Source: Koleobacter methoxysyntrophicus (lineage in GTDB: Bacteria > Bacillota > Thermosediminibacteria > Koleobacterales > Koleobacteraceae). From it: a stretch of DNA of 64,000 nt. The first letter of the stretch is position 1. Each line of letters starts with the position of its first letter. Made by a program: the position numbers and the translations under genes. The notes under the pieces were generated by a model. The model saw only the letters and a list, made by a program, of their open reading frames with translations. It had not been told where the DNA came from and searched no databases. The stretch lies in the NCBI RefSeq assembly GCF_017301615.1, contig NZ_CP059066.1, forward strand, positions 496,001 through 560,000, in the 5' to 3' direction. Positions 16,163 through 49,512 of the stretch are shown piece after piece.

Positions 16163-16240
16163 TGACTATATACTTTACTCAGGACACAGCAAGTCCAGTT
16201 GAAATAATGGCAAACACATAAACGACTGTTAATTTGGCTC
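16163..16240 (+). repeat. Half copy of a dispersed palindromic repeat
   Basis: These 78 nt match the reverse complement of 38928-39005 with about 11 differences (~86%), beginning tgactatatactttactcag and ending aatttggctc. The copy at 38.8-39.0 kb is the longer, nearly palindromic form. It lies between the thioesterase stop and its terminator. Confidence 0.8.
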
Positions 16241-23511: not shown

Positions 23512-23569
23512 GTATTATTACACTAATACACCCGTATATATTATAATCCACCACCGGGTGATATGTCAA
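23512..23569 (-). promoter_or_regulatory. Sigma-A promoter and operator of the YtrA-type operon
   Basis: On the minus strand: TTGACA (23569-23564), 18 nt, TATAAT (23545-23540), both exact consensus. Just downstream is the perfect palindrome gtatta-ttacac-taatac (23512-23529), placed where a bound repressor would block initiation and elongation. Confidence 0.75.
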
Positions 23570-35732: not shown

Positions 35733-37361
35733 TCATTCCTGTCTTTTCTCTGCAGCAATTACGGCAGCACCTAATGCACCTACTATTTGAGGCTCAAAGG
35801 GGATTATGATTTTTTCACAAATCCGGGCTTCGATTTCGCATACAACCCCCTTGTTTTTGGCAACTCCTCCTGTCATCATGTATTTGCCGCTCCTTCCTAC
35901 CCTATCTAAAAGTGAAACTGCCCTTGATGCTACCGACTGGTGGATTCCTCTTATAATATCATTCCTGTCTTTATTCCGGGCAATCAGGGAAATTACCTCC
36001 GACTCCGCAAAAACTGTACACATGCTTGTAATTACGATATCCTCTTGAAAATCCGTAACAGCTCTTGCCATATCTTCAATGGAGACCTCCAGTGCCCTGG
36101 ACATTACTTCCAGAAACCTGCCGGTCCCCGCCGAGCACTTGTCGTTCATCACGAAGTCTACAACATTTCCGGCATCATCCAGCCTTATTACCTTGCTGTC
36201 CTGCCCCCCGATGTCGATTACAGTTCTTACACCCTTATCTAAATAGAAAGCACCTCTGCCGTGGCAGGTTATCTCGGTAACGGATTCGTTTGAAAAAGGA
36301 ATGTTTATCCTCCCATATCCTGTCGAAACGGCATAAGCAATATCTTCTTCTTTTAACCCGGCCTTTTTAAGAGCTATACGGTAAGCTTCCCGGGCGCTGC
36401 CCAGCGCCCTTGCACCGGTAGGCACGGTTGAATAGGAGATTATATTTTTATTCTCATCTATTATCACCACATTGGTAGAAGTGGACCCACTGTCTATGCC
36501 GGCAAAATAGCCGCTTTTTACAGGGTGTGCAATGGCCCTTTTGACGCCAAGGGATTCTAAAAAGGCATCTATTCTGGTCAGTACCTGCCCGCTGTTTGAA
36601 TCCGAATAGTCGGTTTCTATTTTTAAGATGGGAATATTTGAAGTCTTTTTTAGCGATGTGTACTCGAAGGAATAAAAATCGCAGAATTTAACTGTATTAT
36701 ATATTACTCCCTTTAAATTAAGGTCATCTAAAAGCTTCGACCTGTCCTCCGCCATCCTCATGCATGGGGGTAAATTTAAAAGCGCTTTTGCGTAGCTGAA
36801 AATCAAGTCGCCCTCCTGTCCAACCTTTGAAGGCCTGCTTATGCCAGTGCATGTCAAATTTACCACATCTAGATTACATCTTCTCTTTATGTTTTCTATA
36901 ACCCCATCGTTTAATCTACCCCCAAAAACCGCAACGCATTTGCCCTTGCAAGCATTTTCCATTTTATGCTCTGCTAAGACCTTTTTAAACTTATTAAGGT
37001 CAAACTTTTTGCCCTTATAGGCCTCATAAGCCCCTATGAAATGAAGGAGTTCCCTGTAAAAAAGACTGTAAGCGCTTCCTGTTATTTTTCTGGGCAGGTC
37101 AATGATATGTATAAATTTTACTTTCCCCCTTAATATATCGTATAGTCTTCTTATGCTGTCACAGCAATTTACCAGGATTATTTCGTTTATATTTTCTCTA
37201 ATTATCTCCTCTAAAGCCCCCTTCATAAAGCTGCACATGTTGGGATGGGTTAAACTCATCGCCTTTTCAACGGACTTTACCTTTGGCTCTATCCTGCAAA
37301 CTCCCTCATCGAAAGCCCTGATTATTTCAACGGGAGTATATTTGCATACATATCCTGTCAT
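35733..37361 (-). CDS. Fusion of an HgdB-like domain with a BadF/HgdC-type activator ATPase
   Basis: 542 residues. Residues ~1-280 resemble a 2-hydroxyacyl-CoA dehydratase (HgdB-like) subunit; residues ~285-540 are an ASKHA ATPase: FAGIDSGSTSTNVVIID, DIGGQDSKVI, NDKCSAGTGRFLEVM and CTVFAESEVISLI. The two Cys would hold the dimer-bridging [4Fe-4S] cluster of activators that drive one electron into dehydratases with ATP. Usually the two parts are separate proteins. It lies 4 nt after its partner gene, so they form one operon. Confidence 0.85.
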   Translation of the reverse strand: MTGYVCKYTPVEIIRAFDEGVCRIEPKVKSVEKAMSLTHPNMCSFMKGALEEIIRENINEIILVNCCDSIRRLYDILRGKVKFIHIIDLPRKITGSAYSLFYRELLHFIGAYEAYKGKKFDLNKFKKVLAEHKMENACKGKCVAVFGGRLNDGVIENIKRRCNLDVVNLTCTGISRPSKVGQEGDLIFSYAKALLNLPPCMRMAEDRSKLLDDLNLKGVIYNTVKFCDFYSFEYTSLKKTSNIPILKIETDYSDSNSGQVLTRIDAFLESLGVKRAIAHPVKSGYFAGIDSGSTSTNVVIIDENKNIISYSTVPTGARALGSAREAYRIALKKAGLKEEDIAYAVSTGYGRINIPFSNESVTEITCHGRGAFYLDKGVRTVIDIGGQDSKVIRLDDAGNVVDFVMNDKCSAGTGRFLEVMSRALEVSIEDMARAVTDFQEDIVITSMCTVFAESEVISLIARNKDRNDIIRGIHQSVASRAVSLLDRVGRSGKYMMTGGVAKNKGVVCEIEARICEKIIIPFEPQIVGALGAAVIAAEKRQE

Positions 37362-37365
37362 TCTG

Positions 37366-38730
37366 TCACCTTCTCTTTACTATTTCTAAAAAAGCTTCAA
37401 GCCTTGTCTTTGCCTGGCCATGCTGATTGTTTCTCCTGTCTATTACATCACCGTCAACGGCCAGGAAAGGAATATTTTTTTCTTTTAGATAATCTTTAAA
37501 CATGCCAGTGCATCCGATAGACTGTTTGCAGCCCCAGTGGCAGAACTGGATTATGCCGTCGGGTTCTATCCTGTCGATTATATTTGAAAGGGCTTCAATC
37601 CTCCTTTCAATACTGCCGTTGTATGCATTTAAAATCAGCTTTTTTGCAATGCCTTCAAAAGGTTCCCGATATTCCACTTCCTCCAGAAAGTCATAATTTA
37701 AGTCGCACCCGAGGAGGTGGAAATCTCTGCTGAAGTTAAAGCGTTCTTTGAAGCTCACTTCAAACATGGGCGGCAGGTGGATAAAAAATATCCCCCCGCC
37801 GCTTCTCAAAGGCGCTCTCTTTATATCTTCAGCCAGCATTTTATAAAAATTGAGCGTATCTTCCCGACCTATAAAAACATGGGAAGTGAACAACATATAC
37901 AATTCAAAGGACATGGTTGAATTTAGACACCTTTGTCTTAAATTTTCAATATACTCGTTTATCAATGTTTTCGTCTGATTTTCCCGGATTACTATTTCCC
38001 TTAATTTGTCTATATCCAGTTTCCTGTCAAAAACTTCTTCGATTAAAACCGCCATTTCTTTAAGCTGCTTTTTCACATATTCTAGGGAATCCCGATTATA
38101 CTCATAGGGAACATCAATTATGTAAAGGGGGATATTGTATTTTCCAGCCATGTACCTGAAGGTGTTTATATTTGCGTCACAGGCCATAGAAGTGGTTATG
38201 GCCATTTTGGGTTTTTTCAAAATATTAAATTCCCCCGAACCTATAAACACCTTGTGGAAACTGCAGAGGGTATTTGATATACCGGAAGATTCTGCTCTGT
38301 CAATGAGATTGCCCTCGATTAAAAACCCTGACATAAAGGAAGAATAGGCTTCAATAAAGAGTGGGTATATATCCATGGCGTGCAGGAATTCGGTGGGGGC
38401 AAAAATATTGACCCAAATGGAGTTTTCCGGGTGGCATAAGGGCTCCTTAATGTTTTTCAGGCATATTTTGTTTAAAAAACCCAGGGCTTGTGGAAGCCTC
38501 CTGTCGGGGAAAAGGCTTACATACTTGAGTGCTGCATCAAGACCAAATTTTATAAACTTAAAAGCCCTTTCAGGGTTATCGAGATTTTTCCTTATGATGT
38601 GGCTGTAAGTTCTTATCAAGTCCATGTAAAAACACCTCATTGACCATTTACTAGCAGCTTTTTCCCTCCCACAAACGTATCTATAATGATTATATATATT
38701 GTTAAAAGATGAATCAAGGTTGTTTTTCAT
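37366..38730 (-). CDS. 2-hydroxyacyl-CoA dehydratase/HgdB-like subunit
   Basis: 454 residues with the HgdB pattern: FAPTEFLHAMDIYPLFIEAY, cysteines at about SNTLCSFHKVF, ITTSMACDANINTFR, and HWGCKQSIGCTGMFKDYLKE. Such Cys residues bind [4Fe-4S]. The genuine dehydratases need an HgdA-like second subunit, which is not in the window, and the ATPase partner has its own HgdB-like domain. So this may be a dehydratase, a benzoyl-CoA-reductase-like enzyme, or another ATP-driven radical/low-potential reductase. Substrate unknown. Confidence 0.8.
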   Translation of the reverse strand: MKNNLDSSFNNIYNHYRYVCGREKAASKWSMRCFYMDLIRTYSHIIRKNLDNPERAFKFIKFGLDAALKYVSLFPDRRLPQALGFLNKICLKNIKEPLCHPENSIWVNIFAPTEFLHAMDIYPLFIEAYSSFMSGFLIEGNLIDRAESSGISNTLCSFHKVFIGSGEFNILKKPKMAITTSMACDANINTFRYMAGKYNIPLYIIDVPYEYNRDSLEYVKKQLKEMAVLIEEVFDRKLDIDKLREIVIRENQTKTLINEYIENLRQRCLNSTMSFELYMLFTSHVFIGREDTLNFYKMLAEDIKRAPLRSGGGIFFIHLPPMFEVSFKERFNFSRDFHLLGCDLNYDFLEEVEYREPFEGIAKKLILNAYNGSIERRIEALSNIIDRIEPDGIIQFCHWGCKQSIGCTGMFKDYLKEKNIPFLAVDGDVIDRRNNQHGQAKTRLEAFLEIVKRR

Positions 38731-38817: not shown

Positions 38818-39005
38818 TGACTATCCCTTTAGCTCAGGGGGAATTAAATGGCATCCCTCCGCTTGCCGTTCGCTTCGCATCCATGCTCCGCTCACTCTGG
38901 AATTTGGCTCTCTGCCATCCATGGCTCCGAGCCAAATTAACAGTCGCTCCGGGATTTGCCATTAATTCAACTGGATTTGCGGTATTCTGAGTAAAGTATA
39001 TAGTC
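38818..39005. repeat. 188-bp imperfect palindromic repeat element
   Basis: Left end tgactatccctttagctcag; the reverse complement of the right end is tgactatatactttactcag. Inside, aatttggctc and gagccaaatt form a central stem (38911-38938) and gaattaaatggc/gccattaattc another pair. The right 78 nt recur at 16163-16240. No ORF; it looks like a miniature inverted-repeat element or remnant of a larger one. Confidence 0.75.
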
Positions 39006-39026
39006 AGTTAAAAAAATAAAAATCAT

Positions 39027-39371
39027 GGTAGAAAAGTTCCAAATAACAGCGGTAGCTCCCCCGTTATGGTGATTTCCCTCAAGGCAGGGGGGACAGGGCT
39101 AAACCTTACTGCAGCAACAAATGTAATCCATTACGACCTGTGGTGGAACCCTGCAGTAGAAGATCAGGCCACCGACAGGGCATACAGGATCGGCCAGGCA
39201 AATAATGTCTTTGTCCACAGGCTGATCAGCCTCGGCACCTTCGAGGAAAAAATTGATGAGATGATCACTGCAAAAAAAGAACTTGCAGAACTGACAGTAA
39301 CTGCAGGCGAAAGCAGGCTCAGCGAGCTCTCCAATGAAGAACTGAGAGAGATATTTATGCTGGAAGATTGA
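39027..39371 (+). pseudogene. Broken second copy of the 3' end of a SNF2 helicase gene
   Basis: These ~345 nt match 49107-49450, the last 115 codons of the intact helicase, with ten substitutions and one missing A (ttccaaataac against ttccaaaataac) that shifts frame before the ATG-like Met. ATG 39066 leaves a 101-aa frame (MVISLKAGGTGLNLTAATNV ... helicase motifs V and VI: QATDRAYRIGQ). No upstream helicase part and no ribosome binding site, so non-functional. It borders the palindromic repeat. Confidence 0.9.
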
Positions 39372-39381
39372 CGAAGAACCA

Positions 39382-41061
39382 TTACATTCTACCAGAGCGC
39401 AAGATAGAAATCACCAGACCCATTCCAAGTAGCCCAGCCACAGTAAAACCAACTATCCCTAATATTGGCAAGTTATATAGTTTCGGGCTGACATTTGCCA
39501 GAATTATCAGGGATGATCCGATAATTATTGATGCTACAATCATACTAAACACCAGTCGATTTATCATTCTGTGTAATTCAAAAACCACCTTTTCCAGCCC
39601 TTTATATTCGAAATCTATTTTTATACTGTCAGCTTTAATTTTTTGAAACATCTCATTTAAAATTTTAGGAATTACCAATAAGGCCTGATTCAGCTCTGTA
39701 AGGTTTTTAAGTATTGTATTTATTAAATATTGAGGTCTGTAACGTTCCTGTAGCAGTTTTTTAATAAATGGCTTTGCTACTTTAATAATATCAAAATCCG
39801 GATCAAGATCTCTACCGATTCCTTCAATAGTTAAAACGCTTTTGCATAAAAGGGTAAAATTAGAAGGTAATTTGATTTTATATTTTACGGCAATAGCCAG
39901 TAATTCATTAATTAATTTAGATATTTTTATTTGCTTTAAAGCCTTACCATAGTAATGTTCCACCATATCTTCAATATCCAGTTGAAATTTTCCAAGTTCA
40001 ATATCTTTACTAACAAGCCCAATATCTAAAAATGTTTTGATGATTTTTTCTGAATCCCTATTTATCACACCGATAATCAAATCTGCCATCTTGTGTTTTG
40101 TAAATTCGTTAATTCTGCCCATCATTCCAAAATCAATAAAACTTATCTTCCCATCAGGGCATATAAATATGTTCCCGGGGTGAGGATCTCCATGAAAAAA
40201 ACCGTGAATGAAAATTTGCTTCATCATTAATCTCGCGCCATTTTCTGCTATTTCCTTCCTGTCCAATCCTAATTCTGAAATTTTATCAAACTGATTTACT
40301 TTTACACCATTTATATATTCTATTGTAAGGACCTTTTGGGTAGTTGCGTCCCAATAAACCTTCGGGACGTATATTGTTTCATCTCCTTCAAAATTCCGGT
40401 AAAACCTCTCGATATTCCAACCTTCCCTTGTAAAATCAAGCTCTTTGCGAATTGCGTCGGCAAACTCTTCCACTATCCCTACAGGGTCATATATGCGACT
40501 TTCTGGAATGTGTTTTTCTAGAAGCCTCGCCAGATGAATAAGAATTTCAAGGTCCGTGTTAATTAATCTATCTATATCAGGCCGCTGAACTTTAACAACA
40601 ACATCCTGTCCGGTCTTGAATACCGCTCTGTGTACCTGACCGATAGAAGCTGCAGCAATAGGCTGTTTTTCAAACTTTAAAAAGATATCCTCCATACTGC
40701 ATTTAAATTCACTCTCAATTTGTTCTTTTGCTTTTTCATAGTCAAACCCCGGAACATTATCCTGTAATTTTTTTAGTTCTATAATATATTCACCAGGAAC
40801 AATGTCAGGTCTTGTGCTGAGAATTTGACCGAGTTTTATAAATGTCGGCCCCAGCTCTTCTAACATTAATACTATTTTTTGAGGAGTTGTTAACGTTTTT
40901 TCTTTATAAAATTGATTTTTTGAGATTTTCCCCTTCTGCAATATGCTTATAATTCCAATCTTCTCCATAATATATCCAAATCCGTATTTTATAACAATAT
41001 TAACAATCTGCCTGAACCTCTGAGCGTGTTGGTAAGTAGAATTAAACTGCTTAAAAATCAA
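39382..41061 (-). CDS. UbiB/AarF/ABC1-family atypical kinase with C-terminal membrane anchor
   Basis: 559 residues; TTG 41061 with AGGAGGG 6 nt upstream. Landmarks: GPTFIKLGQILSTRPDIVP (KxGQ), AAASIGQVHRAVF (Ala-rich loop), VVVKVQRP (Lys), HGFFHGDPHPGNIFI and ISFIDFGMMGR. Two C-terminal transmembrane helices (FSMIVASIIIGSSLIILANV; GFTVAGLLGMGLVISIL). In aerobes UbiB aids quinone synthesis; here, in an anaerobe beside lipid enzymes, it likely acts in membrane lipid or lipid-droplet handling (inference). Divergent from the plsC-like gene. Confidence 0.88.
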   Translation of the reverse strand: MIFKQFNSTYQHAQRFRQIVNIVIKYGFGYIMEKIGIISILQKGKISKNQFYKEKTLTTPQKIVLMLEELGPTFIKLGQILSTRPDIVPGEYIIELKKLQDNVPGFDYEKAKEQIESEFKCSMEDIFLKFEKQPIAAASIGQVHRAVFKTGQDVVVKVQRPDIDRLINTDLEILIHLARLLEKHIPESRIYDPVGIVEEFADAIRKELDFTREGWNIERFYRNFEGDETIYVPKVYWDATTQKVLTIEYINGVKVNQFDKISELGLDRKEIAENGARLMMKQIFIHGFFHGDPHPGNIFICPDGKISFIDFGMMGRINEFTKHKMADLIIGVINRDSEKIIKTFLDIGLVSKDIELGKFQLDIEDMVEHYYGKALKQIKISKLINELLAIAVKYKIKLPSNFTLLCKSVLTIEGIGRDLDPDFDIIKVAKPFIKKLLQERYRPQYLINTILKNLTELNQALLVIPKILNEMFQKIKADSIKIDFEYKGLEKVVFELHRMINRLVFSMIVASIIIGSSLIILANVSPKLYNLPILGIVGFTVAGLLGMGLVISILRSGRM

Positions 41062-41121
41062 AGATAACCCTCCTACCTGTTTTTTATATTTCCATTATAC
41101 CATATCAAAGCTGGTTTCTTA

Positions 41122-41138
41122 AGAAAAGGTAAATCTCC
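41122..41138 (+). repeat. Left copy of a 17-bp direct repeat flanking the miniature element
   Basis: agaaaaggtaaatctcc at 41122-41138, repeated at 41410-41426, each touching one end of the element. Confidence 0.75.
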
Positions 41139-41409
41139 TGTCAATAACTTGAGAAAATGTCACCCCCAAACAGGGTTAATTATCGTCAGAAAATGTCACC
41201 TTAGGAAGGCTTCCTAACCGGGCCAATACAATTATAGTTATTCCGTTCGGCCAGTCAAGGGTAAAATGAACGGGCATAGCCCGCCCTTGACAGACCTCAC
41301 TCCATAACTTGATATAAATTAAGCCCGTTTAGGAAAATTGCACCTCGCTCTTCATAGTGACATTTTATCAAGATAATTTACAAGGTGACATTTTTACAAG
41401 ATAATCACA
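41139..41409 (+). mobile_element. 271-bp miniature element with IS21-like ends
   Basis: The left 26 nt (from tgtcaataacttgag) and the reverse complement of the right 26 nt (tgtgattatcttgta) agree at 21 positions and both end in aaaatgtcacc. Each end has a second, inner copy of the tgtcacc-bearing motif (41185-41208 left; 41355-41390 right), as in the multiple terminal repeats of IS21-type elements, which start TG and end CA. No transposase; the middle has two hairpins (gtcaaggg/cccttgac, 41254-41291, enclosing cgggc/gcccg). Flanked by a 17-bp direct repeat. Confidence 0.65.
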
Positions 41410-41426
41410 AGAAAAGGTAAATCTCC
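41410..41426 (+). repeat. Right copy of the 17-bp direct repeat
   Basis: Same 17 nt as 41122-41138; immediately followed by the -35 box of the plsC-like operon. Confidence 0.75.
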
Positions 41427-41455
41427 TTGACAGAACCTTAAACATAAAGTATAAT
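41427..41455 (+). promoter_or_regulatory. Consensus promoter of the plsC-like operon
   Basis: ttgaca (41427-41432), 17 nt, tataat (41450-41455): perfect sigma-A boxes, about 55 nt before the start codon. The miniature element lies directly upstream, so any activator site there would have been displaced. Confidence 0.85.
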
Positions 41456-41510
41456 ATGAAATAGCTTTTGGGGAATTTGTGGATATTGGCGTTATTTGGG
41501 GTGTGATTTT

Positions 41511-42098
41511 TTGTTATATATTATTATAAAGCTTTTGAGTTTAATTATTTTAAAATTAGTTTTCAGACTTAAAATAACCGGTAGTGAGAATATGCCGAAA
41601 ACTGGCCCTTTTATTATTGTGGCAAATCATTCAAGTTTATTAGATGGATTTGTCCTTGTATCATCTGTTAAACATAAAATAACCTTTATGTCTGCTGCAT
41701 ACCTTTTTAAAATGCCTTATATCGGCATTTTTTTCCGGGGAATTGGCGCCATTCCTGTTCAGAATAAAAAGAATGATATTAATTCTATAAAACAGGCCAT
41801 AAAAATCCTACAGGCTGGTGGTGTTCTGGGAATCTTCCCTGAAGGAGGAATTAATCATCAAAAAAATGATTTTTCACCCAAAGCCGGGGCTGCATATCTT
41901 GCAATAAAGACAGGCGTTCCAATTATTCCAGTAGCAATCAAAGGGGCTGATAAGGTTTTACCAGCCGGAATAAAATTTCCCAGATTAAATGAAATTAAAG
42001 TAAATATTAGAAAACCAATTTTCTGTTCAAAAAAAATTAATCTAAACAAAGAAATTCTTAAAAATACAGTAAAATCTTACATGAAAGAAATATATTAA
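41511..42098 (+). CDS. PlsC-like 1-acylglycerol-3-phosphate acyltransferase
   Basis: 195 residues from TTG 41511 (GGGGTG 7 nt upstream; the frame reaches 41496). N-terminal membrane helix, then acyltransferase motifs: I VANHSSLLDG (HX4D), II around GAIPV, III IFPEGGINH, IV VPIIPVAI. It would add the second acyl chain to lysophosphatidate at the membrane. First gene of a run with a patatin gene 12 nt downstream. Confidence 0.88.
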   Translation: MLYIIIKLLSLIILKLVFRLKITGSENMPKTGPFIIVANHSSLLDGFVLVSSVKHKITFMSAAYLFKMPYIGIFFRGIGAIPVQNKKNDINSIKQAIKILQAGGVLGIFPEGGINHQKNDFSPKAGAAYLAIKTGVPIIPVAIKGADKVLPAGIKFPRLNEIKVNIRKPIFCSKKINLNKEILKNTVKSYMKEIY

Positions 42099-42110
42099 AG
42101 GTGGTGGAAA

Positions 42111-43013
42111 ATGTCGCAATGCACTAATAGCCCCAAAATCGGGCTTGTCCTGGGAAGCGGAGGAGCACGCGGATATGCTCACCTAGGCGTACTTAAGGTT
42201 TTGCACGAAGAAGGTATACATATTGATCTTATTGTAGGAACGAGCTTTGGATCTATAATTGGTGCGGCATATGCTGCAGGATGCGATATCTATGAGTTAG
42301 AAAAAATAGCTCTTGAGATTAGATGGATAAAATTGTTAAAAATGGTGGATATTGCACCTCCGAAAGGAATATTTGCAGGGAACAAATTGGAGAGTTTTTT
42401 TTCCTCTCTTACACGACAAAAGCACTTCTTTGAATTAAAGGTTCCTTTAGCAGTAGTTACAACTGATATTAAAACAGGAGAAGAAGTCCTTATCAGTAAA
42501 GGGTCAGTATCTAGAGCAATATTAGCCAGTTCCGCACTCCCCGGTATTTTTGCACCGGTAAAGATAGATGATCGATGGCTGGTTGATGGTTCTCTCGTCA
42601 ATCCTTTACCGATTCAAACAGCTTTTGATATGGGTGCTGATATGGTGATCGCTGTTGATGTTAGTTCGCCAATTGATAACATCGGTCAGTTAATGGCCTT
42701 AAAAAAATATCTCAAGATTTTCTCACAAAATTTATATTATCAAATACCTTCTGCGAACAATATTGTTTCCCTTGGCAGAATTTTTAATAAGTTTCAGTGT
42801 ATCATCCCTGCAGGTTTTACTATTATCGGAAGGGCTCTTAATATTCTGCATAATAATCAGGGCAAAATGGCTGTCATTCCTGACGGCGGTAGTGTAGTTA
42901 TTATCAAACCAAGAGTTGAAAATATCCGCTGGTGTGATTTCCACCATGCGCAGAGATGTATTGAGCTAGGTATAGAGGCTGCTAATCATGCTTTACATGA
43001 TATTAAAATTTAA
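42111..43013 (+). CDS. Patatin-like phospholipase (RssA/NTE-type)
   Basis: 300 residues. Oxyanion loop GLVLGSGGARGYAHLG, catalytic Ser in IVGTSFGSIIGAAYA (GxSxG), catalytic Asp in WLVDGSLVNPLP. AAAGGTGG before ATG 42111. Removes acyl chains from phospholipids. Paired with an acyltransferase, it suggests a deacylation-reacylation cycle on membrane or droplet lipids. Confidence 0.9.
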   Translation: MSQCTNSPKIGLVLGSGGARGYAHLGVLKVLHEEGIHIDLIVGTSFGSIIGAAYAAGCDIYELEKIALEIRWIKLLKMVDIAPPKGIFAGNKLESFFSSLTRQKHFFELKVPLAVVTTDIKTGEEVLISKGSVSRAILASSALPGIFAPVKIDDRWLVDGSLVNPLPIQTAFDMGADMVIAVDVSSPIDNIGQLMALKKYLKIFSQNLYYQIPSANNIVSLGRIFNKFQCIIPAGFTIIGRALNILHNNQGKMAVIPDGGSVVIIKPRVENIRWCDFHHAQRCIELGIEAANHALHDIKI

Positions 43014-43151
43014 ACACCTAATCTGTATAGTAAGATTGGGTTAAAAATAGAGGGGGTGAAACCATAACTTCGTAAGCAAATAATATGAAGAAAGAAGTAA
43101 ATAATAATAAACATGATAAAAAAACATGATAAAATGTAAGGAGGGTCTTAA

Positions 43152-44519
43152 ATGATTGATTTTGCTTTTGCAAAAAAATACGTAGGTGAAAAAATCCTTC
43201 AAGAAACCTTAAACTACCTTGCTAAAAATCCCGAAAACAATGTTCCCAAACTTGCAAATTTATTGAAACAAATAGCGCGTAATGAAAATCACAAAGAGCA
43301 AATAGATGCACTTTTACAGGCATACAACGAAAATCCCAATACAAAAAAATACATAAGCCGAATTTTAACTGAGATTAATCCTCATGTTAGACAACGCATA
43401 GTATACAATCTTGGCATAAATAACTGGCTTATCGGAATTCCCAAGCAGCAGCAAACAACAGAAGAACTGGGTGTGAATATTCCAAACACAATTTTGATTG
43501 ACCCTACAAGTGCGTGCAACCTGCGCTGTGAAGGTTGCTGGGCAGGCACTCACGTAAAACATGATACTTTATCATATGAACTGGTAGACAGAATATTGAC
43601 CGAAGCTAAAGAGCTGGGAATATACTGGGCAGTTGTGTCAGGCGGAGAGCCATTTTTATATCCGCATTTATTTAAACTTGCCGAAAAACATAATGATATG
43701 GTATTCATGGTCTACACAAACGGCACTCTTATTACAGACGAGGTTGCCGATAGAATTGTTGAAGTAGGTAATATTTCACCAGCTATCAGTCTGGAGGGAT
43801 GGAAAGAACGGACCGATGCCCGGCGTGGTGAAGGTGTGTTCGATAAGGTTGTAGGTGCTATGGATAGGCTTCACAGTCGCCGTGCTCTTTTCGGTATATC
43901 CCTTACAATGACCAGGGAAAACTACAAAGAAGCAACCAGTGATGAGTTTATTGATTTCTTAATTGATAAAGGAGCAATTTACGGATGGTCATTCCATTAC
44001 ATTCCTATCGGACGCAATCCGAATCCTGATCTAATGTTAACACCCGATCAAAGAGCGTATTTGGTCGAACGTGTGCGCTATATCAGAACCCATAAACCAT
44101 TTATGCTGATGGATTTCTGGAATGACGGGGAGTATACCGAGGGTTGCATAGCAGGAGGACGGCGTTATTTCCATATCGCTCCTAGCGGGGATGTTGCACC
44201 ATGTGCTTTTGTTCAGTTTTCTACCGATAATATCAAGGAGAAAAGTTTACTTGATGTTCTTAAATCGCCTTTGTTTGCTGCATTCCAGAAGAGACAGCCC
44301 TTCTGTGAAAATCATTTAAGGCCCTGTCCTATTATTGACACACCTGATGCTTTAAAAGAAATTGTCGCAGAGAGCGGGGCACATCCGCTATATCCCGGAG
44401 CAGATGCTGTAATTTCAAAAGACACCAATACTTTATTAAATGAAAGGGCTGCCCAATGGGCTCAGGTTTCCGATACCATCTGGGATAAAAAACTAAAAAA
44501 CCAGAAAGTAGTTCAATAA
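43152..44519 (+). CDS. Radical SAM protein with SPASM-like C-terminus
   Basis: 455 residues, AAGGAGGG before ATG. After a ~110-residue helical N-terminal extension comes the cluster motif DPTSACNLRCEGCWAG (Cx3Cx2C), then VVSGGEPFLYPHLFKLAEKH and MVYTNGTLITDEV, the radical SAM barrel. C-terminal cysteines (YTEGCIAGGRRYF, SGDVAPCAFVQF, PFCENHLRPCPI) would bind an auxiliary Fe-S cluster. Substrate unknown; it sits between a patatin and a membrane-bound HTH protein. Confidence 0.85.
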   Translation: MIDFAFAKKYVGEKILQETLNYLAKNPENNVPKLANLLKQIARNENHKEQIDALLQAYNENPNTKKYISRILTEINPHVRQRIVYNLGINNWLIGIPKQQQTTEELGVNIPNTILIDPTSACNLRCEGCWAGTHVKHDTLSYELVDRILTEAKELGIYWAVVSGGEPFLYPHLFKLAEKHNDMVFMVYTNGTLITDEVADRIVEVGNISPAISLEGWKERTDARRGEGVFDKVVGAMDRLHSRRALFGISLTMTRENYKEATSDEFIDFLIDKGAIYGWSFHYIPIGRNPNPDLMLTPDQRAYLVERVRYIRTHKPFMLMDFWNDGEYTEGCIAGGRRYFHIAPSGDVAPCAFVQFSTDNIKEKSLLDVLKSPLFAAFQKRQPFCENHLRPCPIIDTPDALKEIVAESGAHPLYPGADAVISKDTNTLLNERAAQWAQVSDTIWDKKLKNQKVVQ

Positions 44520-44593
44520 GCTTGATAAATGCAGCATTTTAATTTATACTGAAAACAGAAATTTGTTAAGCTTTTTGGGGGAGGAATGGCAAA

Positions 44594-45289
44594 TTGACTT
44601 TGACGCAAAGGCGGAAAGAATTTTTAATAAAAATCAAACAACTTTACGAAAAAAATAATGCTCCTGTTCACTATATTACGGTTGCTGAAAAACTCGGTGT
44701 AAGTAAGTGGTCTGCATATGAAATGTTAAAAGAACTGGAAAAGAAAGGATTTCTCGCAGCTAAATATATAGTTGATCAAGAAAAGAAAAATCCGGGTAGA
44801 TCTATGGTCTTTTTTATCCCCACTAAAATAACAGAAGAAGTGTTGTCAAAAAAAGAGCAGCTATCAAATCAACTGGAAGAATGGCATCGAACAAAGGAAT
44901 ATCTTTTACAAATGTTTAAGAATCTCGAAAAACCCGGCCCCCAAAAAGTTATTGATGAGTTATTAGAAAAAATGTCCGCAATAGAAATGCCTATTATCTT
45001 GAGTGCATATATTATTACTTTTCTGATTGTGTGCCTAAAAATTTTTAGTTCGAAAAGTATACAGTTTATAAAGAAACATGTACTCTTCACATCTAAACCA
45101 GAAATAGCCCTGAGCATGTTTGCGGGTACTGTTCTGGGTAACATTCTGAAAACCGCTGCGAATTTTAATTTGATTGATCAGCTTACTGTATATATCAAGC
45201 AATTTCAGAATAGTATAGATGAAATTAATTTTCAGGAAAAAACCCTTTTGATGGACTTCTTAAAGGAGGCCTTAGAAGTAACTAGTTAA
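44594..45289 (+). CDS. HTH protein with a membrane-anchored C-terminal half
   Basis: 231 residues, TTG start 9 nt after GGGGGAGG. Residues 1-80 form a winged helix (ITVAEKLGVSKWSAYEMLKE, LEKKGFLAAKYIVD). A coiled segment follows, then hydrophobic stretches MPIILSAYIITFLIVCLKIF and ALSMFAGTVLGNILKTAANF. The layout suggests a regulator that senses a membrane or lipid state. Family not otherwise recognised. Confidence 0.7.
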   Translation: MTLTQRRKEFLIKIKQLYEKNNAPVHYITVAEKLGVSKWSAYEMLKELEKKGFLAAKYIVDQEKKNPGRSMVFFIPTKITEEVLSKKEQLSNQLEEWHRTKEYLLQMFKNLEKPGPQKVIDELLEKMSAIEMPIILSAYIITFLIVCLKIFSSKSIQFIKKHVLFTSKPEIALSMFAGTVLGNILKTAANFNLIDQLTVYIKQFQNSIDEINFQEKTLLMDFLKEALEVTS

Positions 45290-45313
45290 ATTTAAAAATT
45301 TGGAGGGATAAAA

Positions 45314-45613
45314 ATGTTTGATTTGACAAAAAAAATTCTTTATCTCGGGTTAGGTACATTAACTTTTACTAGAGAAAAAGCAGAACAGGTGGTCAATGAA
45401 TTAATCAAAAAAGGTGAAGTTAAGCAGGAAGAAGCTGCAAACCTGGTAGATGATCTGGTTAAGCGAGGTCAAAAAGAAAAGGAAAATTTGAAAGAAATTA
45501 TCAACCATGAAGTAACTAAAATTCTTGCAGAAATGAATATCGCTACAAAAGTTGATATTAAACATCTTGAAGATAAAATAAAGCTTCTAGAAGATAAATT
45601 ACAATCGGAATAA
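45314..45613 (+). CDS. Phasin-like small coiled-coil protein
   Basis: 99 residues, GGAGGG before ATG. MFDLTKKILYLGLGTLTFTR then EKAEQVVNELIKKGEVKQEE, LVDDLVKRGQKEKENLKEII and a C-terminal coiled coil (LEDKIKLLEDKLQSE). This is the phasin/PhaF-like family (poly-hydroxyalkanoate granule-associated), common beside ubiB-like genes in Firmicutes. It may coat lipid or membrane surfaces; no PHA genes are in the window. Confidence 0.75.
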   Translation: MFDLTKKILYLGLGTLTFTREKAEQVVNELIKKGEVKQEEAANLVDDLVKRGQKEKENLKEIINHEVTKILAEMNIATKVDIKHLEDKIKLLEDKLQSE

Positions 45614-45637
45614 TCGTATAGTTGACGTTTTCTTCTT

Positions 45638-45664
45638 TCTAAGACCTATGGTCTTAGATTTTTT
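45638..45664 (+). terminator. Terminator of the plsC-to-phasin operon
   Basis: tctaagacc (45638-45646), tat, ggtcttaga (45650-45658), then ttttttg. Confidence 0.88.
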
Positions 45665-45799
45665 GTTTATCAATATCAAATCTACTACAGCTACTTATAA
45701 GAACCTTATTTTTCCGGAGTATTGTGTAGGGTACTTTTCTATAGGTGAAATTATGGTATAATTATAGCATCGAAAATTTTCATCAACGGGGGAAGAGAA

Positions 45800-48700
45800 A
45801 TGGCGAAGAGCAGAAAATACGGCAAAACATGGTGGGGAAATGCCTGGGTAGATGCTCTGGAAAGAATAGATTACAATACCAACAGGCTTCCCAGGGGTAA
45901 GAGATATGCAAATGACGGCAGGGTAAAGGAAATTAAAGTAGATACAAGCGGCAGGGTAACTGCAAAGGTCAAGGGGACTCGTTCTCGTCCTTACCAGGTA
46001 GAGATAAGGCTAAACAGATTTTCCCCCGCTCAGAAAAAGATTATTAAGTCCGTTATTGCCAAAGACCCGGTTCTGGCTTCAGAGCTGTCTTTGGGAAGGC
46101 TGCCGGAAAAGATACTTGATCGCTTTGAAAAAAACAATATTTACCTGCTGCCTGAATCGTGGGATGATATTGACGCAAGCTGTTCATGCCCTGACTGGGC
46201 CAATCCGTGCAAGCACCTGGCAGCAGTTTATTATATCATAGCCAATGAGATTGATAAGGACCCTTTCATATTGTTTAAGTTAAGGGGTTTAGACAGTGGT
46301 GAACTGCTTCAATCTGCGGGTTTTATCTCACGGGACGAAAAAAACGGGGACCCCATGCCAGGGCAGTTAAGCACCAGAACCCTTTCCTTCATACCTTATA
46401 CAGATATAAAAATTACAAAAAATCGTCAAAAACAGCAAAATAAGCAAGAATTCCCCATTGATTTGAGCAGCATTGCAGGAAGCAGAGAGAGCAAGGCAAT
46501 TTTTGCACTACTTGGTGATAAACCCCTTTTTTATTCGGAAGGTAATTTTAAAGACGTGTTATTACGAGCCTACAAAAATATTTCAAACTCCATGGAAAGA
46601 CTTGAACTTTTAGAGAATGGGTTTTCCTTTAAAGATACAGAGTTTACGCTCCTCTACCCTTCAAATAATGACTTTAATGAAATTTTATTTTTTGTCAGTT
46701 CAGGAAAAGAAGGGGCTGACTGGAAAACCCAGAAAGTTCCGGTTTTAGATGGTGAAGGCTTAGCCTTGAAAAGAAAAAAGGGGGAAAGCCTGCCTGCAGG
46801 GGCCGTCCTGGATATGTTCCTTGCTGTTCCCCTTGAGCTCCCTGCTGAACGAAGTTCCCCCTGGGCAGCCTTTTTAAGTGCGTCCTGTGCTCTGGCCCAG
46901 GCACTGGCCAGGGCATCATCCTTTGTGCCTGAAGTAAGGGTTCCGAATACAAAAACAGTAAAATCCGTGAAACACAATGGGGCTTTTTATATTTCCTACA
47001 GGCCCATGGACAGGTCTGGAAAGCTTGTGCCAGCGCTTGACTACCTGGCATCAATAATGCCCCCGGGTTTTATTTATAATAAAAAAGAAAGGGCTGTGTT
47101 AACAGGAACTGAAGCTGTGCTGGAGTTTTTGTCAATTATCCTTTCTCATATAGTTCATCGTTTCGCCGGGATTGATTGTCACGATAAGATATGCGGGGCC
47201 TTTTTCCGCGGGGAAATATACCGCCCCGAAAAATTTGAGGAAGAACAGACTGCCAAGGCAATTTCTGACTGGCTCGGCTGGCTCAACCTTGACCAAGGCC
47301 ATATCTCCCCGGTAATTAAGATCGACCTGCCCGCACCGGGCAAAGAAAAATTCAAGTTAAAAGTATATGTGGAGGACAAAAAAGACCCCCTCGCACCGAT
47401 TTTACCCTTAAAGGAAATCTTCTCCGACAGAGAAGAACTCTTCTCCCTTCCGGCTCAGGATGCCCGCAGGGAAGTAGCGCGCCAGATGACTATTGCCGGT
47501 GAGTACCTCCCGGTATTGAAGGCGCTTTTAAGCCATAAAGGGAAAAAATATGCCAATCTTAGCCCCACTGAAATGGCAGGATTCCTCACAGAAGGGCAGC
47601 AGATATGTTCACTCCTCGGCATCAGGGTAATAATCCCCAAAGAGCTGAAAAAAATGGCAGCCCCTGCCCTGTCAATAACTGCAAGGGTAAAGAAGGGCAG
47701 TGAAAAGAGGGTTAGCTACCTTAATCTGGCAGATATCCTTGACTTCTCCTGGGAAGTATCTATCGGAGACATTAATATAAGCAGGGAGGAATTTATAAAA
47801 CTCGCAAAATCAGCTGAAGGGATTGTCAGGTTCAGAGACCATTACTTAATGTTGAAACCTGAAGAAGTAAAGTTAATACTGGAGAAGCTGGACAACCCTC
47901 TGCCGCGGCTTACTTCCATGGAAATACTCCAGGCATCAATTACAGGAGAAGCATCAGGTGTATCCTTTAATCCGGATGCAGTTATTAAAAAGCTGGCAAA
48001 TGACCTGGGCAAAGAGGAAGAAATAGGGGCCCCTGCAGGCCTTAAGGCCAAACTGCGCCCCTATCAGCAGCGGGGGCTTAACTGGCTTTATGCAAATACT
48101 ATAAGGGGATTAGGCTCCTGTCTTGCCGATGATATGGGCCTGGGTAAAACATTACAGGTTATAGCCCTTATGCTAAAGCTTAAAGAAGACGGATGGCTTA
48201 AAAAATCTGCCCTGGTAATCTGCCCCACGACCCTTATAGGTAACTGGGTTAAGGAATGTAAAAAATTTGCCCCTTCGCTGAGGGTAGCTGTTTACCATGG
48301 AAGCAGCCGCAGACTGACTGTAAAGGACACTGACGTGATTATTACGTCTTATGGGATTTTGCGGAAGGACGCAGTCAAATTTAAAAAGGATTTATGGGAT
48401 TTAGTGGTTATAGACGAAGCGCAAAATATTAAAAACCCCGATACGGATCAGACAAAGGCGGTAAAATCACTTGGTGCCAAAAGTTATATAGCCATGAGCG
48501 GAACCCCTGTAGAGAACAGGCTCATGGAGTTATGGAGTATTTTTGACTTTATAAACAAGGGTTATCTGGGCAAGCGGCAGGATTTTGCCAGAAGATTTGC
48601 ACTTCCTATAGAAAAATACAGGGATAGGGAAAAGATTGAAAAACTCAGGAAAGCTACCGCTCCCTTTTTAATGAGGAGATTGAAAAGCGATAGAGCAATT

Positions 48701-49450
48701 ATTGCAGACCTCCCTGATAAAATAGTAAAGAATGAATACTGCTATTTGACCGGTGAACAGGCTGCTCTGTACAAGCAGGTTACAGATTCAATGATGAAAG
48801 AAATAGAGAAAAGTGAAGGAATAGCTCGAAAGGGACTGGTCTTTAAACTTATAACATCTTTAAAGCAGATCTGCAATCACCCCGTCCTTTACTCTAAAAA
48901 AGGCAGGGCCCAGAAGGAACACTCAGGTAAGGCAGAAAAGGTGTTATCCATCCTGGAAAGCATAATATCCGGCGGGGAAAAGACCTTGGTATTTACTCAG
49001 TATAAGGAAATGGGAGAACTGCTGGTGGACATGATAAAGGAGAATTTACAGGTAGAAGCGCTGTTTTTCCACGGAGGCCTTCCCAGGAAAAAGCGCGATG
49101 AAATAGTAGAAAAATTCCAAAATAACAGCGGTAGCTCCCCCGTTATGTTGATTTCCCTCAAGGCAGGGGGGACAGGGCTAAACCTTACTGCAGCAACAAA
49201 TGTAATCCATTACGACCTGTGGTGGAACCCTGCAGTAGAAGAACAGGCTACCGACAGGGCATACAGGATCGGGCAGACAAATAATGTGATTGTCCACAGG
49301 CTGATCAGCCTCGGCACCTTCGAGGAAAAAATTGATGAGATGATCACTGCAAAAAAAGAACTTGCAGAACTGACAGTAACTGCAGGCGAAAGCAGGCTCA
49401 GTGAGCTCTCCAATGAAGAACTGAGAGAGATATTTATACTGGAAGATTGA
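45800..49450 (+). CDS. SNF2-family DNA-dependent ATPase with N-terminal SWIM zinc finger
   Basis: 1216 residues. SWIM finger CSCPDWANPCKHLAAVYYII at about 127-146. The C-terminal ~470 residues form the helicase core: LRPYQQRGLNWLY (Q), ADDMGLGKTLQ (motif I), ICPTTLIGNW (Ia), VVIDEAQNIKNP (II, DEAQ), MSGTPVENRL (III), then FHGGLPRKKRDEIVEKFQ, LISLKAGGTGLNLTAA (V) and QATDRAYRIGQ (VI). GGGGGAAGAG before ATG 45800. Such proteins translocate on dsDNA and remodel DNA-protein complexes; in bacteria linked to replication-repair or RNA polymerase recycling. A damaged copy of its last 345 nt lies at 39.0 kb. Confidence 0.92.
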   Translation: MAKSRKYGKTWWGNAWVDALERIDYNTNRLPRGKRYANDGRVKEIKVDTSGRVTAKVKGTRSRPYQVEIRLNRFSPAQKKIIKSVIAKDPVLASELSLGRLPEKILDRFEKNNIYLLPESWDDIDASCSCPDWANPCKHLAAVYYIIANEIDKDPFILFKLRGLDSGELLQSAGFISRDEKNGDPMPGQLSTRTLSFIPYTDIKITKNRQKQQNKQEFPIDLSSIAGSRESKAIFALLGDKPLFYSEGNFKDVLLRAYKNISNSMERLELLENGFSFKDTEFTLLYPSNNDFNEILFFVSSGKEGADWKTQKVPVLDGEGLALKRKKGESLPAGAVLDMFLAVPLELPAERSSPWAAFLSASCALAQALARASSFVPEVRVPNTKTVKSVKHNGAFYISYRPMDRSGKLVPALDYLASIMPPGFIYNKKERAVLTGTEAVLEFLSIILSHIVHRFAGIDCHDKICGAFFRGEIYRPEKFEEEQTAKAISDWLGWLNLDQGHISPVIKIDLPAPGKEKFKLKVYVEDKKDPLAPILPLKEIFSDREELFSLPAQDARREVARQMTIAGEYLPVLKALLSHKGKKYANLSPTEMAGFLTEGQQICSLLGIRVIIPKELKKMAAPALSITARVKKGSEKRVSYLNLADILDFSWEVSIGDINISREEFIKLAKSAEGIVRFRDHYLMLKPEEVKLILEKLDNPLPRLTSMEILQASITGEASGVSFNPDAVIKKLANDLGKEEEIGAPAGLKAKLRPYQQRGLNWLYANTIRGLGSCLADDMGLGKTLQVIALMLKLKEDGWLKKSALVICPTTLIGNWVKECKKFAPSLRVAVYHGSSRRLTVKDTDVIITSYGILRKDAVKFKKDLWDLVVIDEAQNIKNPDTDQTKAVKSLGAKSYIAMSGTPVENRLMELWSIFDFINKGYLGKRQDFARRFALPIEKYRDREKIEKLRKATAPFLMRRLKSDRAIIADLPDKIVKNEYCYLTGEQAALYKQVTDSMMKEIEKSEGIARKGLVFKLITSLKQICNHPVLYSKKGRAQKEHSGKAEKVLSILESIISGGEKTLVFTQYKEMGELLVDMIKENLQVEALFFHGGLPRKKRDEIVEKFQNNSGSSPVMLISLKAGGTGLNLTAATNVIHYDLWWNPAVEEQATDRAYRIGQTNNVIVHRLISLGTFEEKIDEMITAKKELAELTVTAGESRLSELSNEELREIFILED

Positions 49451-49512
49451 CTAAAATTTAAGCCCTTTTTTTCTCGCAGATTATAAGTTTTTAGATAGCT
49501 TGGGGTGATTGT

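What the first reader, a model, noticed from the sequence alone, without database searches (positions are those of the whole stretch)
39382..45613. Conserved-looking lipid/membrane module: UbiB-like kinase, PlsC-like acyltransferase, patatin, radical SAM, membrane HTH, phasin-like protein
Divergent from the UbiB-like gene, five genes run from one perfect promoter (41427-41455) to one terminator (45638). They combine lipid acylation, lipid deacylation, a radical SAM enzyme, a regulator with a membrane-anchored half and a phasin-like surface protein. In an anaerobe with no ubiquinone or PHA genes in view, this reads as a self-regulated membrane- or droplet-lipid remodelling system with an unknown radical step. 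plsY, the preceding enzyme, is 4 kb away.
Basis: partly seen in the sequence, partly recalled or inferred. Interest (0 to 1): 0.6.

Follow-up and report, generated by a model that had tools for sequence, protein, structure and literature searches.

The report
Mobile lipid-coupling radical-SAM gene module
Six neighbouring genes travel between anaerobic bacteria as one block and probably build or remodel an unusual membrane lipid, most likely by joining fatty-acid tails end to end with a radical enzyme helped by a lipid-handling ATPase of the kind known from coenzyme Q synthesis.

Summary
All six genes are there, with intact family motifs, a perfect promoter (0.08 exact matches expected per 64 kb) and a terminator. 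The unit is also conserved. Loci from other bacterial families and from an Atribacteria MAG carry the same genes in shuffled order, with extra lipid genes (FabH, PlsX, a FakB-like DegV protein, a diacylglycerol glycosyltransferase). Between this genome and one from another family, exactly UbiB-to-terminator (39380-45675) is 91-94% identical in DNA, while another shared gene is only 71% identical in protein. The block therefore moves as a unit.

The 'unknown radical step' has a good candidate. The radical SAM protein (N-terminal helical domain, six invariant cysteines, one auxiliary cluster with only three Cys ligands) has exactly one homologue in Thermotoga maritima, and nearly every Thermotogota genome searched has one. 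This is the likely family of Mss, the membrane-spanning-lipid synthase. It is not Tes. Mss identity could not be checked, because the founding paper is not held. Best reading: a regulated tail-to-tail lipid-coupling module in which UbiB plus the phasin-like protein make lipid tails accessible. The regulator's 'membrane anchor' is not a conserved feature, and PHA storage is unlikely.

The parts
39382..41061 (-). UbiB/ABC1 (COQ8-type) atypical kinase/ATPase, 559 aa, C-terminal hydrophobic pair; divergent from the operon
   Evidence: PF03109 2e-87, TIGR01982 512 bits over cut-off 487; KLGQ, AAASIGQVH, HGDPHPGN, DFG motifs; 91% DNA identity to G003 as part of the block
41427..41455 (+). perfect sigma-70-type promoter, TTGACA-17-TATAAT, of the five-gene operon
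   Evidence: kept in G003 with an 18-bp spacer
41496..42098 (+). PlsC-like 1-acyl-glycerol-3-phosphate acyltransferase, 200 aa
   Evidence: PF01553 5e-29; HX4D and FPEG motifs
42111..43013 (+). patatin-like phospholipase (RssA-type), 300 aa
   Evidence: PF01734 4e-32; GTSFG Ser and DGS Asp
43152..44519 (+). radical SAM/SPASM-like enzyme, 455 aa, N-terminal helical domain (1-106), six invariant Cys (122, 126, 129, 332, 351, 392); clade A of a family that includes the single Thermotoga maritima homologue; candidate membrane-spanning-lipid synthase (Mss) paralogue
   Evidence: AlphaFold model pLDDT 91.6
44594..45289 (+). winged-helix regulator (MarR/PadR/FabT-like N-terminus) with a six-helix hydrophobic C-terminal domain; family found next to this rSAM family in several phyla
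45314..45613 (+). small phasin-related helical/coiled-coil protein, 99 aa; usual genomic partner of UbiB
   Evidence: PF05597 and NF047773 above cut-off; phasin directly upstream of ubiB in L036, L046, L075, L078, L291-L293
45638..45658 (+). intrinsic terminator-like stem-loop plus T run
   Evidence: the conserved block ends just after it, at about 45675

Best explanation
A horizontally mobile six-gene module for making or remodelling an unusual membrane lipid. The core reaction is carried by the radical SAM enzyme. It most likely takes two lipids, makes a 5'-deoxyadenosyl radical, abstracts hydrogen near the methyl end of one acyl chain, parks that carbon on its auxiliary 4Fe-4S cluster (three Cys ligands, one open or labile site), and couples it to a second chain, giving a membrane-spanning (diabolic-type) lipid, as archaeal Tes does. 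PlsC supplies the acylated substrate (FabH, PlsX and a FakB-like protein do so in relatives). The patatin removes or recycles chains. UbiB with the phasin-like partner uses ATP to lift or loosen lipid from the bilayer so the soluble enzyme can reach tail ends. The winged-helix protein senses acyl chains or lipid and controls the operon. Shown here: the unit, its conservation and its transfer as a block, the family relations, the cysteine pattern, and the genomic pairing of UbiB with phasin and of the regulator with rSAM. Inferred: substrate, tail coupling, the UbiB/phasin role and the ligand of the regulator.
For: Genes and motifs. Same set in distant loci, for example FabH-rSAM-PlsC-patatin-phasin-HTH-UbiB (L037), PlsC-patatin-FabH-rSAM-HTH-phasin-UbiB (L078) and Atribacteria UbiB/patatin/phasin-PlsC-patatin-rSAM-FabH (L072). 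Extra lipid genes PlsX, FabH, DegV/FakB-like and diglucosyl-diacylglycerol-synthase-like. Block transferred as a unit, 91-94% DNA identity ending at the block's edges, GC 35.6% against 42-45% around it. UbiB from more than one lineage joined to the rSAM. rSAM family: a single copy in T. maritima at 38% identity, E=2e-112, and a single copy in Caldanaerobacter and Thermoanaerobacter, genera with reported iso-diabolic acid (PMC13274423). Six Cys invariant in 90 of 90, so the auxiliary cluster has three Cys ligands. Tes stores its substrate radical on an auxiliary cluster whose Met ligand is labile (PMC9433317).
Against: The paper that defined Mss is not held, so the T. maritima homologue may not be the tested Mss. 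The nearest solved folds are generic SPASM peptide maturases, SkfB first, and Tes matches only over the rSAM core. The genome also has a clade B paralogue with its own regulator, so the module enzyme may have diverged. Clade B loci mostly lack the module. The window's UbiB belongs to a class-wide UbiB lineage that elsewhere sits away from the module. Some comparison genomes are MAGs, and their binning was not verified.
Confidence: 0.55

Rival explanations
1. The module modifies membrane lipids, but the radical SAM enzyme does another reaction on acyl chains or head groups (methylation, desaturation, cyclisation, head-group chemistry); clade A has left the Mss function to clade B.
For: Clades A and B are well separated (99 and 100 support) and both occur in this genome and in Moorella. 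Producers with a single copy have clade B.
Against: All six cysteines and about 50 positions are invariant across A, B and Thermotoga, which argues for the same chemistry.
Confidence: 0.2
2. The radical SAM enzyme is a peptide (RiPP) maturase that sits by chance among lipid genes.
For: Best structural and sequence matches in the PDB are SkfB, SuiB and anSME.
Against: No RiPP precursor-like gene recurs in the neighbourhoods; lipid genes do. No match reaches any RiPP-maturase cut-off in NCBIfam.
Confidence: 0.08
3. A storage-granule or lipid-droplet system (phasin coat, acyltransferase, lipase).
For: Phasin domain; in the Atribacteria locus it is fused to PHB_acc_N, a PHA regulator domain.
Against: No class III PHA synthase at E<=1e-10 in 13 genomes including this one (class I and wax-ester synthases not tested). 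Phasin pairs with UbiB.
Confidence: 0.07
4. A quinone-related set: UbiB serving quinone synthesis, with unrelated lipid genes next to it.
For: UbiB passes the ubiquinone-linked model TIGR01982, and class relatives keep UbiB elsewhere.
Against: UbiB from more than one lineage has joined this rSAM, usually with phasin, and here it moved with the operon. Quinone pathway genes were not searched genome-wide.
Confidence: 0.1

Closest known systems
Bacterial membrane-spanning lipid synthase Mss (Sahonero-Canavesi et al. 2022; used in PMC13274423, PMC11604127)
   Same: Single T. maritima homologue of the window rSAM at 38% identity and E=2e-112; present in iso-diabolic-acid-producing genera and in bacterial families that the Mss survey lists
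   Different: Mss sequence not verifiable here; the window copy is clade A, a paralogue of the clade B copy found alone in Caldanaerobacter and Thermoanaerobacter; the operon with UbiB, phasin, PlsC, patatin and HTH was not found described
Archaeal tetraether synthase Tes / GDGT-MAS (PDB 7TOL, NF045702)
   Same: CX3CX2C radical SAM core; auxiliary 4Fe-4S cluster without four Cys ligands (Met-labile in Tes; three invariant Cys here)
   Different: No rubredoxin or N-terminal cluster domain; own genome has nothing near the Tes cut-off (62 against 450 bits); whole-fold match not found
UbiB with UbiJ/UbiK, or COQ8, in ubiquinone synthesis
   Same: UbiB ATPase with all motifs; small helical partner; proposed role in lipid extraction
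   Different: Partner is phasin-like, not shown to be UbiK; setting is acyl-lipid genes in an anaerobe
Ger/PlsA glycerol ester reductase
   Same: BcrAD_BadFG and HGD-D domains occur in the adjacent pair 35733-38730, which also follows the module in G013
   Different: DUF2229 absent from the pair; in this genome DUF2229 occurs only in short separate ORFs, not a fused 1400-aa protein as in T. maritima

Membership tests
Mss (membrane-spanning lipid synthase) | Homology to tested Mss at E<=1e-30 and >30% identity (published survey cut-off, PMC13274423) | tested here: inconclusive
   38% identity and E=2e-112 to the only T. maritima family member, but that this protein is the tested Mss was not confirmed
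Mss (membrane-spanning lipid synthase) | Occurs in organisms that make (iso)diabolic acid | tested here: met
   Nearly all Thermotogota searched; one copy each in Caldanaerobacter and Thermoanaerobacter, two in Moorella; lipids from PMC13274423. This is a test of the family, not of the window's organism, whose lipids are unknown
Mss (membrane-spanning lipid synthase) | Couples two fatty acyl tails | not testable with these tools
   needs expression and lipid mass spectrometry
Tes / GDGT-MAS (NF045702) | Score above curated cut-off 450 bits | tested here: not met
   best in own genome 62 bits
Tes / GDGT-MAS (NF045702) | Three auxiliary metal sites including a rubredoxin domain | tested here: not met
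   only three invariant Cys beyond the SAM motif
Radical SAM | CX3CX2C motif and PF04055 | tested here: met
   C122, C126, C129; 4.5e-19
UbiB/ABC1 | KxGQ, Ala-rich loop, HGDPHPGN and DFG motifs; C-terminal hydrophobic pair | tested here: met
   PF03109 2e-87
PlsC/LPAAT | HX4D and FPEG motifs | tested here: met
Patatin | GXSXG Ser and D-G Asp dyad | tested here: met
Phasin of PHA granules | PHA synthase in the genome | tested here: not met
   no class III PhaC at E<=1e-10 in 13 genomes; other classes not tested
Ger/PlsA (for the adjacent pair 35733-38730) | DUF2229 (PF09989) with BcrAD and HGD-D | tested here: not met
   PF09989 absent from both proteins

The most novel reading that the evidence does not exclude
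A mobile module in which a UbiB-type ATPase and a phasin-like partner work as a lipid-extraction device for a radical SAM enzyme that couples acyl tails. This would be the first non-quinone role for UbiB of this kind and the accessory machinery of bacterial membrane-spanning lipids.
Probability: 0.33. Interest if true: 0.82.

Novelty: new variant of a known kind. Interest (0 to 1): 0.62.

Why it matters
Bacterial membrane-spanning lipids are the likely source of branched GDGTs, the soil and sediment palaeothermometer. Only two enzymes (Mss and Ger) are known, and producers, accessory factors and regulation are not settled. A conserved, transferable operon around a likely Mss paralogue gives named accessory candidates and a dedicated regulator. 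It also gives quinone-independent UbiB proteins, a family without an agreed function outside quinone synthesis, a concrete testable role in lipid handling.

Tried and rejected
1) Tes membership: NF045702 in own genome, 62 bits against a 450 cut-off; rejected. 2) Whole-fold match of the rSAM model to Tes by Foldseek: only generic SPASM enzymes in the top 50. 3) Fold of the regulator's C-terminal domain: no match at E<=0.001, only wHTH domains (MarR, PadR, FabT) aligned. 4) PHA reading: no class III PhaC. 5) Ger/PlsA identity for the adjacent HgdB/HgdC-like pair: DUF2229 missing. 6) Literature: no paper held with three or more of UbiB, patatin, radical SAM and phasin; UbiB+phasin+lipid gave one irrelevant paper; the founding Mss paper is not held; no locus-tag match. 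9) T. maritima's other rSAM proteins (HydE, MiaB/RimO-type, B12-binding, RiPP maturases and others) were scanned as alternative Mss candidates. None but L231 is near the window protein, but this is elimination, not proof.

Full report
OBSERVATION. The six ORFs are at the given coordinates, belong to the stated families and keep their catalytic motifs. The operon has a perfect promoter at 41427-41455: two exact matches in 64 kb, 0.08 expected, none of 100 shuffles with two. It is kept in relative G003. A terminator-like stem-loop ends it at 45658. Gaps between the five co-directional genes are 12, 138, 74 and 24 bp. Internal promoter-like sites exist, so a single transcript is likely but not shown.

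CONSERVATION. I searched 61 relatives and took neighbourhoods, then 80 named loci. The set recurs with shuffled order: FabH-rSAM-PlsC-patatin-phasin-HTH-UbiB (L037); PlsC-patatin-FabH-rSAM-HTH-phasin-UbiB (L078, Clostridiales PH28_bin88); UbiB and patatin divergent from phasin-PlsC-patatin-rSAM-FabH (L072, an Atribacteria MAG); phasin-UbiB-rSAM-patatin-DegV-HgdB-HgdC (L036); rSAM-HTH-UbiB (L034, L073, and L074 Moorella mulderi); PlsC-glycosyltransferase-PlsX-FabH-rSAM-HTH (L035). Pfam and NCBIfam confirm PlsX, FabH, a DegV/FakB-like fatty-acid-binding family and a diglucosyl-diacylglycerol-synthase-like protein.

TRANSFER AS A BLOCK. Between this genome and G003 (same order, another family) the DNA is 91-94% identical from 39380 to about 45675, that is from the ubiB stop codon to just past the terminator, and alignment stops at those edges. 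The clade B rSAM of the same two genomes is only 71% identical in protein and its regulator 38%. GC is 35.6% in the block against 42-45% around it. This is what a transferred unit looks like. Caveat: G003 is a draft genome in 50 contigs (86% complete) and mis-binning was not excluded.

THE RADICAL SAM FAMILY. The protein has a helical N-terminus (1-106), an rSAM core and a SPASM-like C-terminus. The model is confident (pLDDT 91.6). Six cysteines are invariant in 90 of 90 sequences: three for the SAM cluster, and three (332, 351, 392) that can hold one auxiliary cluster with an open or labile site. It has one family member, 482 aa, 38% identical, E=2e-112, and nearly all relatives searched in that phylum have one. 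Caldanaerobacter and Thermoanaerobacter, genera reported to make iso-diabolic acid, have one copy each and Moorella two (PMC13274423). The published survey counts Mss homologues at E<=1e-30 and >30% identity, so if the T. maritima protein is the tested Mss, the window protein is in that family. I could not confirm it because the founding paper is not held. It is not Tes. Tes uses an auxiliary cluster with a labile Met ligand to store the substrate carbon as an S-C bond (PMC9433317). The three-Cys auxiliary cluster here is compatible with that chemistry, but this is inference.

TREE. Clade A (32 rows, 99) holds the window protein, and all but one of the full-module loci fall in a 14-row subclade (90); the exception, L046, branches deeply. 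Clade B (42 rows, 100) holds the single copies of most Bacillota and the second copy of this genome; Thermotogota copies form a deep separate clade (quick method, SH-aLRT only). The module therefore belongs mainly to one branch of the family.

UBIB AND PHASIN. The phasin gene sits directly upstream of ubiB in L036, L046, L075 and L078 with rSAM, and in L291-L293 without it. UbiB of more than one lineage has joined the rSAM; the window's UbiB is of the class-wide type that elsewhere is not in the module. COQ8 is thought to help extract lipid intermediates from the membrane (PMC11495197). A UbiB + phasin lipid-extraction role is the most economical reading, and unproven.

REGULATOR. The winged-helix family A3 lies next to this rSAM family in Bacillota, Caldisericota-type genomes and others; elsewhere an ArsR or TetR gene often takes that place. 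The C-terminal domain is six helices with no confident fold match. Its hydrophobicity is too variable for an obligate membrane anchor.

VERDICT. A real, conserved, transferable lipid module. The best mechanism is tail-to-tail coupling by an Mss-type paralogue with UbiB/phasin assistance (0.55 for the module's overall reading, 0.33 for the specific UbiB-extraction version). The parts are known; the combination was not found described in the library searched.

Noticed in passing
window 39025-39375 and 49103-49454: 352-bp direct repeat, 96% identical: a 3' fragment of the SNF2 helicase gene abuts the left edge of the block, and the full gene (45800-49450) follows its right edge. It looks like a trace of the insertion or duplication event.
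   Followed up: partly
window 41121-41427: MITE-like insert of about 288 bp between a 19-bp direct repeat (AAGAAAAGGTAAATCTCCT), with inverted ends; absent in G003; partial copies elsewhere in the genome, some spaced like the two ends of a full IS.
   Followed up: partly
window 35733-38730 (-): HgdB-like protein and an HGD-D/BcrAD ATPase fusion beside the block; the same pair at 64-79% identity follows the module in G013 (L036:12058-14946), so it may be an accessory reductase.
   Followed up: partly
G000:C1:767931-769247 (L048): Second, clade B member of the rSAM family in the same genome with its own winged-helix regulator.
   Followed up: yes
L206:4794-7883: In Thermotoga maritima the family member is flanked by a TetR gene and a second, AhbD/NirJ2-like radical SAM gene on the same strand.
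   Followed up: no
L072:3687-4259: Atribacteria phasin fused to a PHB_acc_N (PhaR-type) DNA-binding domain inside the lipid module: a possible lipid-binding regulator.
   Followed up: no
window 23540-23569 (-): A second perfect TTGACA-18-TATAAT promoter in the window; its gene was not examined.
   Followed up: no
window 16163-16240 and 38929-39006: 78-bp inverted repeat at 86% identity, one copy just upstream of the SNF2 fragment.
   Followed up: no
L122: Two nearby copies of the rSAM family in a contig labelled Heimdallarchaeota, an archaeon with a bacterial-type family.
   Followed up: no
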